From NCBI RefSeq assembly GCF_028737195.1, contig NZ_JAQZAJ010000003.1, positions 186,001 through 250,000 on the forward strand: a stretch of DNA of 64,000 nt, given 5' to 3'. Within the stretch, counting starts at the first letter, position 1. Each line of letters begins with the position of its first letter. The DNA is from Pseudovibrio exalbescens (GTDB lineage: Bacteria > Pseudomonadota > Alphaproteobacteria > Rhizobiales > Stappiaceae). Below, piece by piece: positions 10,753-57,675 of this stretch. The position numbers and the translations under genes were made by a program. The notes beneath the pieces were generated by a model. That model was not told the DNA's origin. It worked only from the letters and a program-made list of their open reading frames with translations, and searched no databases.

Positions 10753-11143
10753 ACCAGTCGGCCGGACGGCCGCTCCCGCAAGTGCCGAAAGGCCGCGGGG
10801 GAGGAAAGTCCGGGCTCCATGGAGAAACGGTGCCGGATAACGTCCGGCGAGGGCGACCTCAGGGAAAGTGCCACAGAAAGCAAACCGCCTTCACATGTGG
10901 GGGTAAGGGTGAAAGGGTGGGGTAAGAGCCCACCGCGCGTCTGGCAACAGAGGCGGCATGGTAAACCCCACCGGGAGCAAAACCGAATAGGGGCGGCGCG
11001 GAGGCCTTGGCTTCCAGTCTTTCTCCAGACCTGATCGCCCGGGTTGGTTGCTTGAGGCGTCCAGTAATGGGCGTCCCAGATGAATGGCCGTCACGTGCGG
11101 GCTTGCCCGTGCCATACAAAACCCGGCTTACAGGCCGACTGGT
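10753..11143 (+). ncRNA. rnpB: RNase P RNA (type A)
   Basis: Catalytic RNA of ribonuclease P, which matures tRNA 5' ends. The terminal P1 helix is perfect: ACCAGTCGGCC (10753-10763) pairs with GGCCGACTGGT (11133-11143). The conserved core GGGGGAGGAAAGTCCGGGCT lies near 10797, followed by AGGGAAAGTGCCACAGAAA near 10860. A conserved 3' block ACAAAACCCGGCTTACAGG lies near 11116. Length of about 390 nt fits a bacterial type A molecule. A short T tract follows. Open reading frames across this region are chance frames. Confidence 0.97.
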
Positions 11144-11238
11144 ATTCCTTTTTGCATCGCGCTGTTACTTCCTTGACATCTGCATGAACTAGCAAGCACG
11201 TAATTATACGCGTTTAAGCTGAGTCATAGGAGTGGGGA

Positions 11239-42067: not shown

Positions 42068-42970
42068 ATGGCAACGATCCGTGTGCGCATTCCGCGCCCT
42101 GAGGCGGAGGCGAAGGCCCTTTCTGAGAAACTGGAATTTCTTTTTGAGGACGAGGGCTTTCCGGTCGCCGTTTTTGAAAGCTCCAGCGATGGCAGAACGT
42201 GGACAGCTGAGGTGCTGGTACTCGACAGCACAGTTGAAGACGCCACCGCCTTGACCAAGGCGCAGATCGTGCCGCTGCTGCCAGAAGGCAAACTGCCGGA
42301 AGACGCTGAAGTGGTGGAACTGCCAGAGATCAACTGGGTGGCAAAGTCACTTGAAGGCCTGAAGCCAGTACGGGCAGGGCGCTTCGTGGTGCACGGCTCT
42401 CATGACAAGGATGCGGTTTCCACACACGATATCGGGCTGGAGATTGAAGCGGCGCTGGCGTTTGGTACAGGCCATCATGGCACGACAGCTGGGTGTCTGT
42501 TGGAGCTTCAGCGCTTGTTGAAGCGTCGCCGCTACGAACGCATGCTGGATCTGGGAACAGGCACAGGCGTGTTGGCCATCGGCCTTGCAAAGCTTACCAA
42601 TCAGGAAGTGCTTGCCACTGATATCGATCCGATTGCCACCAAAACCGCTCTGGAAAATGCCAAGTTGAATGGCGTTGCACCTTTGGTGAAAGGCTTCACT
42701 GCGGCTGGCGTGGATGATCGCCGCTTTGCTGAGTACGGGCCTTTTGATCTGGCTGTTGCGAACATTCTCGCCAAGCCACTTGTTCAGATGTCGGCGAAGT
42801 TCGCTCGCAACATGGCTGATCAGTCGACCTTGGTGCTATCCGGCCTGCGCGTTGAAGATGGGCCGCGTATCATCTCTGCTTACAGCCAGCAGGGCTTCCG
42901 CCTTGACCGCCGCGGTGAAATCGACGGATGGCTCACGCTGACACTCGTGCGCGGCAACTGGGCTCCATAA
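42068..42970 (+). CDS. prmA: Ribosomal protein L11 methyltransferase PrmA
   Basis: SAM-dependent enzyme that trimethylates ribosomal protein L11. The 300-residue protein has an N-terminal substrate-recognition domain of about 90 residues and a class I methyltransferase domain: FGTGHHGTTAGCLL, LDLGTGTGVLAIGLAKL, TDIDPIATKTALENA and FDLAVANILAKPLVQM, where the NILA motif is typical of the family. It is a stand-alone gene between uvrD and a strong terminator. Confidence 0.93.
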   Translation: MATIRVRIPRPEAEAKALSEKLEFLFEDEGFPVAVFESSSDGRTWTAEVLVLDSTVEDATALTKAQIVPLLPEGKLPEDAEVVELPEINWVAKSLEGLKPVRAGRFVVHGSHDKDAVSTHDIGLEIEAALAFGTGHHGTTAGCLLELQRLLKRRRYERMLDLGTGTGVLAIGLAKLTNQEVLATDIDPIATKTALENAKLNGVAPLVKGFTAAGVDDRRFAEYGPFDLAVANILAKPLVQMSAKFARNMADQSTLVLSGLRVEDGPRIISAYSQQGFRLDRRGEIDGWLTLTLVRGNWAP

Positions 42971-43001
42971 AAAGGCGCGACCAGTTTTCCAAGTTGTTGA
43001 A

Positions 43002-43026
43002 GGCGGGCTTCAGGCTCGCCTTTTTT
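43002..43026 (+). terminator. Intrinsic terminator after prmA
   Basis: GGCGGGC (43002-43008) pairs with GCTCGCC (43014-43020) with one wobble. Six T follow (43021-43026). It faces the terminator of the minus-strand small-RNA cluster 40 bases away. Confidence 0.88.
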
Positions 43027-43065
43027 GTTATGCGCAAGTACCGTTTTCGGGAGAATTTAGACAAT

Positions 43066-43133
43066 AAAAAACCCCTGCTTCCTGGGAGGAAGAGTTCGGA
43101 TGGGAGGAGCCGAACCCATGGAAGCAGGGGTTT
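43066..43133 (-). terminator. Terminal hairpin and intrinsic terminator of the minus-strand RNA cluster
   Basis: Read on the minus strand, CCCCTGCTTCC and GGAAGCAGGGG (plus 43120-43130 and 43072-43082) form an 11-bp outer stem. It encloses a hairpin (CCGAAC and GTTCGG at plus 43094-43115) and ends in a run of six T (plus 43071-43066). The T run fixes the transcribed strand. Two copies of the TCCTCCCA motif lie within this element. Confidence 0.85.
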
Positions 43134-43273
43134 GATAAGCACCGGATGCGTTGGGAGGAGCGTCATCCGGTTATTTAATATCGAATGAGTGGGAGGAATC
43201 ATTCGATATTGGTGCCTGGCAAGTGGGAGGACTTGCTTCAGCGTCCGACGAACGTATGGGAGGAGTTACGTTC
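43083..43273 (-). ncRNA. Small-RNA cluster with TCCTCCCA anti-Shine-Dalgarno loops (CcsR/cuckoo-like)
   Basis: On the minus strand the octamer TCCTCCCA occurs six times, at plus 43257-43264, 43224-43231, 43190-43197, 43152-43159, 43101-43108 and 43083-43090. Five lie in hairpin loops. Their stems are GAACGTA with TACGTTC (43250-43273), GCAAG with CTTGC (43219-43236), a perfect 12-bp stem (43177-43210), ACCGGATG with CATCCGGT (43141-43171) and GTTCGG with CCGAAC (43094-43115). The sixth is beside the last stem. This is the pattern of alphaproteobacterial CcsR or 'cuckoo' RNAs: CCUCCUCCC-like loops, several copies in tandem, cotranscribed after a small ORF, terminator on the same strand. Processing into separate RNAs is inferred. 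Confidence 0.82.
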
Positions 43274-43362
43274 GACGGGAAGATCGTCGTGCCTTTCGGC
43301 AAATTTTCTTGTTTTGCTGAGGTTTCGCTCAGCTGCAGCGAAGATTCGCTGCCCTATCAGGC

Positions 43363-43542
43363 TTACTTGTCGCCAGCTGGCTGGTACTGGTTCTGAAGTG
43401 CGATGTACACTTCTGCCATTTCCTTGGCCTGCTGTTCGCGAGCTTTCATCATGCGTTCTACGAAACGACGGAAGAAAGATGGCTTGTCTTCACGATCATA
43501 GGCGCCCAACTCAAACTGTCCGGTGGTGACAAAAACTACCAT
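43363..43542 (-). CDS. Small basic protein upstream of the sRNA cluster (possible DUF1127-like)
   Basis: 59-residue ORF starting at ATG 43542-43540 with AAGGAG seven bases upstream, a strong ribosome site. It begins MVVFVTTGQFELGAYDRED and continues into a likely helix, FFRRFVERMMKAREQQAKEM. Known CcsR clusters follow a small gene for a DUF1127 protein. This ORF has a similar N-terminal and helical layout but lacks the usual C-terminal DDxxLxDIGI-type motif, so the family is uncertain. A longer in-frame extension to 43674 has no site. Function unknown; it may matter mainly as the cluster's carrier message. Confidence 0.7.
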   Translation of the reverse strand: MVVFVTTGQFELGAYDREDKPSFFRRFVERMMKAREQQAKEMAEVYIALQNQYQPAGDK

Positions 43543-43844
43543 TTGGGGCTCCTTAATATCTCTCTCGTACGTGCTTGCTGCGTTGCAGCGTTCGTTTCTT
43601 ACAGCCTCTATATGGCCTATGGACGCCTCCGGAAAAAGTGTTAGTTTCGCATGTCGGTTATGCATTTGGTGCATGTCAAGCTGAAATATGTCAGCTAGGT
43701 GTCACAGAAATGCATGAAATGTTGCATTGCAATAAGCGCATGGGAGATATGCGTAATACTAATGGCTTTGGGGTTTCTATCTATAGTGTCGACGGCCAAC
43801 AGAAATAAGTTGAAGGCACTTGGGGGCGGGGATAGCTTGGCGCA
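43543..43844. other. Intergenic region between divergent small ORF and pepP
   Basis: About 300 bases with no convincing gene. It must hold the promoters of both flanking units. Several ATGCA-type repeats occur around 43660-43730. One promoter candidate for the minus strand is listed separately. No other element was recognised. Confidence 0.6.
43651..43680 (-). promoter_or_regulatory. Candidate heat-shock-type promoter for the small ORF and sRNA cluster
   Basis: On the minus strand CTTGAC (plus 43680-43675), 17 bases, then CCGACAT (43657-43651). The alphaproteobacterial RpoH pattern is CTTG...CYTATNT. The -35 fits and the -10 matches five of seven. RpoH control is known for CcsR clusters in Rhodobacter. 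Here it is only suggestive. Confidence 0.35.
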
Positions 43845-45662
43845 ATGTTCCAGAATTTCGACACAGTCAATGACAAAACCCGCGGACCAGCGCGTCTTGC
43901 TGCTCTGCGTGGTGAGCTGGCCTCACAAGGCTTGGATGGGTTTCTGATTCCACGGGAGGATGCGCATCAGGGCGAGTATGTTCCTGCATCTGACTGCCGG
44001 CTGGAATGGTTGACCGGTTTTTCCGGTTCGGCCGGTGTAGCCGCGGTTGTGGGCGACAGTGCGGCAATCTTTGTCGACGGTCGTTACACCATTCAGGTGC
44101 GCGAGCAGGTGGATCTCGACGTCTTCAAGTACCGGCATCTGCATGAACAGCCGTTGGTGGAGTGGCTCTCAGGTGTGCTGAAGCCCGGCATGAAGCTGGG
44201 CTACGATCCCATGCTGCATACGGTGGCGCAGGTGCGCAAGCTCACCGATGCCTGCCATGAAGCGGGTGCGCATCTGGTTGCTGTTCAGGACAATCCGGTT
44301 GATGTGGTGTGGCAGGATCGGCCTGCAGCGCCTTTGGGCGCAGTCAATCTTCATCCGCTTGAATATGCCGGCGAGCCAGCAGCGGACAAGATTTCGCGAA
44401 TTGGCAAGCTGATTTCCGACAAGAAGGCCGAGGCTGCGGTTCTCACTCAGCCAGATTCCATCGCATGGCTCTTCAACATTCGCGGTTCAGATGTGGAGCA
44501 CACCCCGCTGCCGCTGTCTTTCGCGGTTGTGCCTGCTGAGGGCAAGCCGGAACTCTTCATCGATGGCCGCAAGCTCTCCAACCAAGTGCGCGATGCTCTC
44601 TCTGAGCTTACTGAGATTTCGGAGCCTTCTGCGTTGATTCCAGCACTGGAAGTGCTCGGCGCGGCAAGAAAATCCGTTTTGGTGGACTGCTCCTTGGCCG
44701 GGCAGGCGCTCTACGACGCCATTGTCAGCAAGGGTGGCAGTGTTGTTGAGGGGGGCGAACCTGTCCTGCTTCCGAAGGCCATCAAGAACCTTGCGGAAAT
44801 CGAGGGCGCACGCAATGCGCACATTCGCGATGGTGTTGCCTATGCCAAGTTCCTGAGCTGGTTTGAAAAGACCGCCCCGCTTGGTGAGCTGACGGAAGTG
44901 TCCGCGGCGCAGAAGCTGGAAGAATTCCGCCGTGAAACCGGGCTTTTGAAGGACATTTCCTTCGACACCATTTCCGGAGTGGGTGAGCACGGTGCGATTT
45001 GTCACTACCGGGTCAGCTATGACAGCAATCTGCCGATCAAGCTGAACTCCATCTATCTGATTGATTCCGGCGCTCAGTACGAAGACGGAACAACAGACAT
45101 CACCCGCACGCTCGCCGTTGGTGCGGTGACTGAAGAGCAGTGCCGCAACTTCACTCTTGTGCTGAAGTCTCACATTGCTTTGGCAACGGCAAGGTTCCCT
45201 GTTGGTACCTGCGGCGCTCAGCTTGATACGTTGGCGCGCATTGAGCTGTGGAAGGCGGGGCTGGATTTTGATCATGGCACCGGCCACGGCGTGGGCTCTT
45301 ATCTGGGCGTACACGAAGGCCCAGCACGGATCGCCAAGAATAACAATCAGGTGAAGCTGGAGCCAGGTATGATCCTCTCCAACGAGCCGGGTTACTACAA
45401 GGACGGCGAGTATGGCATCCGCATCGAAAATCTAGAGCTGGTTACACCGGCACAGGATATCGATGGCGGGGATCGACCCATGCTTGGCTTCCAGTCTCTG
45501 ACCCTTGCGCCGATTGATCTTCGGCTTGTTGATCAGTCCTTGCTGACCAAGGCCGAGCTTCAGTGGCTCAACGCCTACCACCAGCGCGTGTTCGACACGC
45601 TGAACCCGCTGTTGGATGCAGAAACCAGCGCTTGGCTGAAGGAAGCTACCCGTCAGATTTGA
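43845..45662 (+). CDS. Aminopeptidase P family Xaa-Pro peptidase (M24B)
   Basis: Two-metal peptidase that releases an N-terminal residue before proline. The 605-residue protein has two creatinase-like N-terminal domains (RLAALRGELASQGLDGFLIP and a repeat near 195) and a pita-bread catalytic domain. Metal ligands are visible: IDSGAQYEDGTTDITRTL (two aspartates), GTGHGVGSYLGVHEGP (histidine), ILSNEPGYYK and GIRIENLELV (two glutamates). Length suits the larger cytosolic aminopeptidase P type rather than the short bacterial PepP. Confidence 0.95.
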   Translation: MFQNFDTVNDKTRGPARLAALRGELASQGLDGFLIPREDAHQGEYVPASDCRLEWLTGFSGSAGVAAVVGDSAAIFVDGRYTIQVREQVDLDVFKYRHLHEQPLVEWLSGVLKPGMKLGYDPMLHTVAQVRKLTDACHEAGAHLVAVQDNPVDVVWQDRPAAPLGAVNLHPLEYAGEPAADKISRIGKLISDKKAEAAVLTQPDSIAWLFNIRGSDVEHTPLPLSFAVVPAEGKPELFIDGRKLSNQVRDALSELTEISEPSALIPALEVLGAARKSVLVDCSLAGQALYDAIVSKGGSVVEGGEPVLLPKAIKNLAEIEGARNAHIRDGVAYAKFLSWFEKTAPLGELTEVSAAQKLEEFRRETGLLKDISFDTISGVGEHGAICHYRVSYDSNLPIKLNSIYLIDSGAQYEDGTTDITRTLAVGAVTEEQCRNFTLVLKSHIALATARFPVGTCGAQLDTLARIELWKAGLDFDHGTGHGVGSYLGVHEGPARIAKNNNQVKLEPGMILSNEPGYYKDGEYGIRIENLELVTPAQDIDGGDRPMLGFQSLTLAPIDLRLVDQSLLTKAELQWLNAYHQRVFDTLNPLLDAETSAWLKEATRQI

Positions 45663-57154: not shown

Positions 57155-57470
57155 CCAAAAATCCCAGTGGAGGCTTCTGTTGCCAGGTGCCCCCGAACCC
57201 CGCCTAGAGAGCTAAACCCCCAGGACTTAGCGGACTACCGGTACTGCATTACGCAGCAACAGCGTTGTCCATAGCGTAGTTGTCGTTTGCAACTATCAAT
57301 ATGGCCCGATATCGGTGGTACCATGCCGAGCAAAAGCACAGCCTTTACGCCCTCGTCGATCCTATTTCGCCCCCGCCGAAACCCGCAGATCGTCTGCGGG
57401 TTTGGGTGGAGGCGCCGGGTACCGCCCCCGGGTCCGATAGGTTTATTGCGCTGACCATTTATTGCCGTAG
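57155..57470 (-). ncRNA. ssrA: Transfer-messenger RNA, circularly permuted two-piece type
   Basis: Rescues stalled ribosomes and tags their products. On the minus strand the acceptor piece comes first: T stem CCGGG with CCCGG, then 3' acceptor strand CGCCTCC (plus 57414-57408). A hairpin spacer follows, then the coding piece begins GGGGGCG (57374-57368) and AAATAGGATCGACGAGG. The two strands pair fully with a G3-U70 wobble, the alanine identity element. The tag frame (57290-57252) encodes ANDNYAMDNAVAA then TAA. The 3' end near 57165 carries CCTGGCAACAGAAGCC. End positions are approximate. This layout is the known alphaproteobacterial form. Confidence 0.95.
57375..57407 (-). other. Intervening hairpin removed in tmRNA maturation
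   Basis: AACCCGCAGA and TCTGCGGGTT form a perfect stem around CGA between acceptor and coding pieces of ssrA. In two-piece tmRNAs this spacer is excised. The exact cleavage points are not visible. Confidence 0.7.
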
Positions 57471-57483
57471 CCAGTAAACTGGC
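57470..57483. other. Palindrome at the 5' edge of ssrA
   Basis: GCCAGTAAACTGGC is a near-perfect hairpin at the probable 5' leader of the tmRNA precursor. It may mark the leader that is trimmed. The rest of 57484-57675 holds the divergent promoters of ssrA and thyA, with no clear match. Confidence 0.4.
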
Positions 57484-57675
57484 ATGCGGAATATAGGAGC
57501 TAAGTGGGCTAAATGGAAGGGGAACCCTCAAGGATATGTCAAGCTGTTGACAATCGATGGGAATCGGCGCGCCTTCCTTTATAGTCTGGCAAAAGACAAT
57601 TGGCGGGCCTGTGCGGTTTATAAAGCAGAGGCACAACCTGCCGACAAAAGGCCGCAGAAAGAAAGGGACGACCAC

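What the first reader, a model, noticed from the sequence alone, without database searches (positions are those of the whole stretch)
43066..43542. Minus-strand cluster with six TCCTCCCA anti-Shine-Dalgarno motifs after a small ORF
Six identical TCCTCCCA octamers lie in a train of hairpins, five of them in loops, including one perfect 12-bp stem. The train ends in a terminator with a six-T run and follows a 59-codon ORF with its own AAGGAG. The octamer is complementary to the GGGAGGA-type ribosome site. This agrees with CcsR/cuckoo RNAs of alphaproteobacteria, where tandem copies with CCUCCUCCC loops follow a DUF1127 gene and are heat-shock or oxidative-stress induced. Six motif copies, varied stems around an invariant loop, and a carrier ORF without the usual DUF1127 C-terminal motif make this copy worth attention.
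Basis: partly seen in the sequence, partly recalled or inferred. Interest (0 to 1): 0.75.

Follow-up and report, generated by a model that had tools for sequence, protein, structure and literature searches.

The report
Anti-Shine-Dalgarno RNA array behind decaying gene
A Pseudovibrio bacterium carries a run of predicted RNA hairpins, each showing the same short sequence that could cover the ribosome start sites of many messages, and across the genus this run is kept while the small protein gene in front of it is decaying or gone.

Summary
Six TCCTCCCA octamers lie on the minus strand between prmA and pepP behind a 59-codon ORF, five in hairpin loops and the sixth in the terminator arm; chance is excluded. 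It is a cuckoo/NfeR1-type anti-Shine-Dalgarno (aSD) array, most likely an mRNA 3' end that silences transporter and catabolic mRNAs by covering their ribosome sites.

(2) The carrier ORF belongs to a small-protein family found at this site in 69 of 70 other-genus genomes; within Pseudovibrio it is intact in 4, decayed in 2 (this one included) and undetected in 10, while the array stays. (3) The promoter carries a LsrB/VtlR-type box shared with the genome's second, ar14-like array, so LsrB control is likelier than heat shock.

Formal membership is limited: Rfam ar14 is below its cut-off, no loop has the full CCUCCUCCC, and Pfam DUF1127 does not match the ORF. No expression or target data exist here. 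New variant of a known kind.

The parts
43649..43673 (-). LsrB/VtlR-type LysR box: TGCA-N6-GCAT exact, GCAT-N3-TG-N3-T with one mismatch (CG for TG)
   Evidence: published boxes in passages of PMC10746234, PMC7486931, PMC8844928
43609..43614 (-). -10-like CATATA, 59 nt after the box start (58 in the genome's second array); TSS inferred near 43602
   Evidence: no TSS data
43549..43554 (-). Shine-Dalgarno AAGGAG of the small ORF
43363..43542 (-). 59-codon ORF, DUF1127-like family with its C-terminal LDDxTLxxxGYxR motif lost
43245..43278 (-). hairpin 1, octamer 43257-43264 in loop
43214..43242 (-). hairpin 2, octamer 43224-43231 in loop (its ends close the loop)
43177..43210 (-). hairpin 3, perfect 12-bp stem, octamer 43190-43197 in loop
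43141..43171 (-). hairpin 4, octamer 43152-43159 in loop
43066..43133 (-). terminator hairpin with inner hairpin 5 (octamer 43101-43108 in its loop), octamer 6 (43083-43090) in the 3' arm, six-T run

Best explanation
The locus is one transcription unit on the minus strand: a LsrB-activated promoter, a short leader, a small protein gene that is decaying, and a 3' array of five to six hairpin modules ending in an intrinsic terminator. The array works as a cuckoo/NfeR1-type trans-acting sRNA, either as the mRNA's own 3' end or after cleavage between modules. Each loop offers UCCUCCCA, which pairs over about 8 nt with UGGGAGGA ribosome sites and blocks translation start of many mRNAs, above all periplasmic binding proteins of transporters and catabolic enzymes. 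Shown here: sequence, predicted fold, conservation, promoter box, a LsrB orthologue in the genome, candidate targets. Inferred: transcription, processing, LsrB binding, silencing.
For: Fold and loop exposure. Across 16 Pseudovibrio genomes 77 of 80 [TC]CCTCCC copies are mostly unpaired (mean probability over 0.7) against 57 of 192 random positions, and 57 of 80 fold better than flank shuffles at z below -2 against 28 of 192 (related sequences, not independent). Array at the site in 16 of 16 Pseudovibrio genomes; 0 of 70 other-genus genomes have two or more copies there. Terminator stem paired in 98.1% of cells, both-side changes at 3 of 13 pairs. The two best matches in the 4.39-Mb genome to the promoter pattern (0 and 1 mismatch) are the promoters of the second array and of this one. 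The LysR gene beside trxB matches PDB 9hh1 at 399.5 bits, next best 124.2; 9HH1 is LsrB of A. tumefaciens, and lsrB is said to form an operon with trxB consistently in Rhizobiales (PMC11975290 passages). LsrB activates the aSD sRNA NfeR1 through TGCA-N6-GCAT, and NfeR1's three aSD motifs are needed to silence ntrB (PMC10746234 passages); its targets SMc03121 and SMb20442 encode periplasmic binding proteins (PMC8844928 passages). TGGGAGGA-N4-10-ATG: 35 places against 1 for the reversed pattern; of 23 ORFs of 90 aa or more behind them 7 are solute-binding proteins by Pfam, all 23 scanned; 12 target ORFs recur with the site in G011.
Against: No RNA data. The Rfam ar14 match is below its cut-off and CcsR1 (RF02791) is not listed for the locus up to E 10. 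The loops lack the leading CC of CCUCCUCCC. A strong Shine-Dalgarno marks well-expressed genes, so the target list is confounded: a control site CAAGGAGA gave 1 binding protein among 12 ORFs, all scanned, and 7 of 23 against 1 of 12 is not significant (Fisher p 0.22). This promoter has one mismatch to GCAT-N3-TG-N3-T, and the search pattern was drawn from these promoters. No AbcR RNA reached Rfam's cut-off in 5.7 kb around the LysR gene, unlike A. tumefaciens (PMC7486931).
Confidence: 0.75

Rival explanations
1. The array is a cis element: loops pair with the ORF's own AAGGAGCC site, or the hairpins merely protect the mRNA 3' end, so it tunes the small protein only.
For: Copy 5 (GGCUCCU) pairs with the ORF's ribosome site at -14.0 kcal/mol, better than copies 1-4 and 6 (-5.4 to -10.5).
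Against: In 10 of 16 Pseudovibrio genomes no ORF is detected and the array remains. All six copies pair with a UGGGAGGA test leader at -15.8 to -16.9. Six copies are not needed for one site.
Confidence: 0.12
2. The array titrates ribosomes or similar factors in general, as a decoy that mimics the 16S rRNA tail rather than silencing chosen mRNAs.
For: The loop contains CCUCC as the 16S anti-Shine-Dalgarno does (recalled); six copies per transcript would suit titration.
Against: The kept flank (A right after the core in 75 of 82 copies, T or C right before it in 80 of 82) goes beyond CCUCC; NfeR1 works by pairing with chosen mRNAs (PMC10746234 passages).
Confidence: 0.08
3. Transcription is under RpoH heat-shock/singlet-oxygen control, as for ccaF1-CcsR1-4 of Rhodobacter sphaeroides.
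For: The R. [quoted passage not shown]
Against: A LsrB-type box precedes 16 of 16 array A and 14 of 14 array B units of the genus. No search for an RpoH promoter was made, so it is not excluded.
Confidence: 0.1

Closest known systems
NfeR1 / alpha-r14 (Rfam RF02344 ar14)
   Same: Adjacent hairpins with aSD loops and unlike stems; LsrB box TGCA-N6-GCAT upstream (-72 to -60 in NfeR1); stress and nitrogen regulated sRNA (PMC10746234 passages).
   Different: Here five to six modules instead of three, UCCUCCCA without the full CCUCCUCCC, a small ORF in the same unit, and a score below the Rfam cut-off. The genome's second array (G000:C1:491042-491169) is closer to ar14 (56.6 bits, cut-off 58.8).
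ccaF1-CcsR1-4 / CIN1 locus, cuckoo RNA
   Same: Small protein gene followed by tandem aSD RNAs and one terminator (PMC10253847 passages).
   Different: Small protein not matched by Pfam DUF1127 and lacking its C-terminal motif; promoter box of LsrB type; CcsR1 model (RF02791) not listed for the locus.
SmelA075/SmelA099 families of Sinorhizobium meliloti
   Same: Three and four hairpins with aSD loops, several copies per genome, SmelA075 stress-induced and processed (PMC3927594 section 2.7).
   Different: More modules and a carrier ORF here.
VtlR/LsrB-activated small proteins of Brucella and Agrobacterium (BAB1_0914, Atu1667)
   Same: Small ORF under a VtlR/LsrB box; the Brucella ones are called DUF1127 (PMC7486931, PMC12595884, passages).
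   Different: No aSD array behind those genes is mentioned in the passages seen; here the protein is decaying.

Membership tests
Cuckoo RNA / CIN1 locus (broad sense) | two or more adjacent hairpins, each with an aSD loop, unlike stems | tested here: met
Cuckoo RNA / CIN1 locus (broad sense) | loop motif CCUCCUCCC | tested here: not met
   0 of 6 copies has the full 9-mer; the shared part is UCCUCCCA
Cuckoo RNA / CIN1 locus (broad sense) | small DUF1127 protein gene upstream in the same unit | tested here: inconclusive
   Pfam PF06568 does not match it or eight orthologues; a profile of the ORF family gives 12.5 bits to one of two Pfam-DUF1127 proteins of the genome (the other -0.1) and 30.7 bits to the 59-aa ORF
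Rfam RF02344 ar14 | score at or above 58.8 bits | tested here: not met
   44.9 bits, E 7e-7
Rfam RF02791 CcsR1 | match to the model | tested here: not met
   not among the matches up to E 10 in 42950-43860
LsrB/VtlR regulon | box TGCA-N6-GCAT or GCAT-N3-TG-N3-T about 50-70 nt upstream of the TSS | tested here: met
   first box exact, second with one mismatch; TSS inferred
LsrB/VtlR regulon | LsrB orthologue in the genome, beside trxB | tested here: met
LsrB/VtlR regulon | binding and loss of expression in an lsrB mutant | not testable with these tools
   needs EMSA and RNA
trans-acting aSD sRNA | silencing of mRNAs by pairing at the ribosome site | not testable with these tools
   only candidate sites found

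The most novel reading that the evidence does not exclude
Pseudovibrio shows an sRNA gene being born from an mRNA 3' end. A LsrB-controlled small-protein gene, old in the family, gained anti-Shine-Dalgarno hairpins behind it in the stem of the genus; the protein then decayed at least three times, and in nine genomes the array came to start 87 nt after the LsrB-type box, next to the distance (88) seen in the stand-alone ar14-like array.
Probability: 0.5. Interest if true: 0.6.

Novelty: new variant of a known kind. Interest (0 to 1): 0.45.

Why it matters
How independent sRNA genes arise is an open question, and mRNA 3' ends are a suspected source. Here one genus holds intact, decaying and protein-less versions of the same locus under the same type of promoter box, so the order of events, and whether selection keeps the RNA or the protein, can be tested directly. 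It also places two aSD arrays of one cell under the same predicted redox regulator, LsrB. A full-text search for Pseudovibrio with sRNA listed seven papers, none on sRNAs of this genus by title (listing only); most subscription papers are not held.

Tried and rejected
Rejected: chance clustering. Rejected: plus-strand element (no T-run). Not borne out: a DUF1127 label from Pfam or NCBIfam. Rejected by eye only: recent copy of the second array; the modules look alike in loop and box alone. Plasmid collection: no blastn match. AbcR in the 5.7 kb around the LysR gene: none at Rfam cut-off. Target enrichment against a control Shine-Dalgarno: not significant (one search had used 13 control ORFs by a miscount, p 0.21). 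A whole-array structural alignment was not made because module number differs; only the terminator stem was counted, with 12 of the 17 sequences: two identical ones (G006, G002) and three that looked hard to align (G012, one G010 copy, G001) were left out beforehand, and the MAFFT alignment of the inner part was poor. In that count two measures did not exceed shuffles: pairs with a both-side change (99 of 500 shuffles as high) and further pair types (354 of 500). Whether the ORF sits elsewhere in the ten genomes without it was not tested beyond, whose query was the decayed ORF. Reinkensmeier and Giegerich 2015 and Grutzner et al. 2021 are not held; I saw nothing of them but their mention in PMC10253847.

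Full report
What is there. The minus strand between prmA (42068-42970, +) and pepP (43845-45662, +) carries, in order, a LysR-type box, a -10-like CATATA, a 59-codon ORF with AAGGAG, and a hairpin array with six TCCTCCCA octamers ending in a terminator with six T (the two flanking gene names are mine from their translations). The octamer cluster is far from chance and the fold is far more stable than shuffles (z -9.8). Five octamers sit in loops; the sixth is half in the terminator arm.

Where it is. The window lies in a 4.39-Mb genome. The genus is therefore Pseudovibrio; the other near matches are mostly Roseibium/Labrenzia and Stappia.

Conservation of the array. PepP was found in 86 of 87 family genomes. 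In the stretch upstream of it, on the array strand, 16 of 16 Pseudovibrio genomes hold two to eight TCCTCCC; of 70 other-genus genomes none holds two or more, eight hold one; two of these 70 stretches (G023, G082) did not reach prmA. 80 copies of [TC]CCTCCC were folded: 77 are mostly unpaired against 57 of 192 random positions. Around the core CCTCCC the next base is A in 75 of 82 copies and the base before is T in 67 and C in 13, while the flanks that form the stems are mixed (the core is invariant because copies were chosen by it). The terminator stem changes on both sides at 3 of 13 pairs while 98.1% of cells stay paired; cells with such changes and the covariation score exceed all 500 shuffles, two other measures do not.

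The carrier ORF. In the other genera 69 of 70 genomes have at this site a small ORF with the C-terminal motif seen as LDDATLxxxGYDRxEL (five read in full are 70-74 aa, G020 71). A profile from those 69 finds it in G013 (73.9 bits), G001 (59.8), G012 (57.0, and a second ORF at 19.0) and G011 (44.4), weakly in the window's genome (23.0) and in G005 (12.1); in the other ten Pseudovibrio genomes the best match is 4.9 bits (E 0.76), that is, none. The window's ORF keeps the first half and has lost the C-terminal motif. On a PrmA+PepP tree the intact forms are spread (G011 beside the window's genome, support 100; G012 beside ORF-less G010, 97; G001+G013 beside the main clade, 93), so the protein decayed at least three times. 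G005, with its remnant, lies inside the ORF-less clade (97 with G007), which means more losses or recombination. Pfam calls none of nine of these ORFs DUF1127 and NCBIfam none of four; the likeness to DUF1127 rests on the motif and on 12.5 bits to one of two DUF1127 proteins of the same genome.

The promoter. NfeR1 of S. meliloti is activated by LsrB through TGCA-N6-GCAT (PMC10746234, passages), and the LsrB/VtlR box of Agrobacterium and Brucella, also in AbcR1 at -61 to -49, is GCAT-N3-TG-N3-T (PMC7486931, PMC8844928, passages). The window's promoter has TGCACCAAATGCAT and GCATAACCGACAT: the first box exact, the second with one mismatch. A joint pattern scores 14-17 of 17 in 16 of 16 array A promoters and 15-17 in 14 of 14 array B promoters, above the best of 60 shuffles each (11-13); in 15 of the 70 other-genus promoters, chosen by hand, it scores 11-15, and two of the 15 (G020, G036) do not exceed their shuffles. 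The pattern was drawn from these promoters, so this is partly circular; in G005 the best match is at 112 and a second box lies at 174. GCAT-N3-TG-N3-T is exact in 9 of 16 A and 3 of 14 B promoters. In the whole genome the two best of nine matches are the two array promoters. Box to -10 is 59 nt here and 58 in array B. The LysR gene beside trxB is a clear LsrB orthologue.

The second array. G000:C1:491042-491169, after uvrA (named by eye from its translated end), has four copies, three of them CCTCCTCCCA, no ORF seen between box and array, and 56.6 bits to ar14, just under the cut-off of 58.8. Such an array with three to five copies was found in 14 of 16 Pseudovibrio genomes (not in G008 and G010 by the motif-pair search). 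Motif pairs occur in 84 of 87 family genomes, the reversed control in 4 of 87 (the list of places was capped). In nine Pseudovibrio genomes without the ORF the first motif of array A lies 87 nt after the box; in array B it is 88 in 12 of 12 with a matched box. In ORF-less G010 it is 133, and its array is doubled.

Targets. TGGGAGGA-N4-10-ATG occurs at 35 places in the genome against 1 for the reversed pattern, and 35 against 1 in G011. Two of the 35 are the array itself read from the other strand and one site is listed twice. 34 were examined (L143 dropped out by position); 23 lead an ORF of 90 aa or more, of which 7 are solute-binding proteins, one an ABC ATPase and one an MFS carrier; most of the rest are enzymes such as aldehyde and acyl-CoA dehydrogenases, FAD oxidases and an acyl-CoA synthetase. 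They include 3 of the 15 DctP proteins of the genome (hypergeometric about 7e-5 with 3,900-4,300 genes assumed). Twelve recur in G011 with the site (29 of its 35 places compared), five of them binding proteins. Against a different ribosome site, 1 binding protein in 12 ORFs, the excess is not significant (Fisher p 0.22). This agrees with the known targets of NfeR1 and AbcR, but strong ribosome sites of well-expressed genes could give the same picture.

Verdict. It works like NfeR1 and CcsR: an aSD hairpin array, probably LsrB-driven. It belongs to the cuckoo kind in the broad sense; the strict tests (9-nt loop, Rfam ar14 and CcsR1, Pfam DUF1127) are not met. What is new is the genus-wide pattern: array kept, protein repeatedly decaying. 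Heat-shock control is unsupported, not excluded.

Noticed in passing
L016 1371-1402 (G000:C21:313670-313701): Two TCCTCCCA on the minus strand, i.e. two TGGGAGGA on the plus strand about 110-140 nt before a long plus-strand ORF (1509-); a like pair recurs in P. exalbescens (G011:C11:7710). Possible target or decoy of the arrays.
   Followed up: partly
G020:C5:60542-61218 (other genus of the family): Eight close pairs of CCTCCTCCCA motifs in 0.7 kb that look like four tandem copies of a three-motif aSD sRNA.
   Followed up: no
L073 (G010), array A: The array is doubled in tandem, eight motifs, no ORF detected.
   Followed up: partly
L039 (G012), about 930 nt upstream of pepP: A second small DUF1127-like ORF follows the array on the same strand (19.0 bits).
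   Followed up: partly
window 10754-11146 + and 57166-57522 -: RNase P RNA and alphaproteobacterial tmRNA, both over the Rfam cut-off.
   Followed up: no
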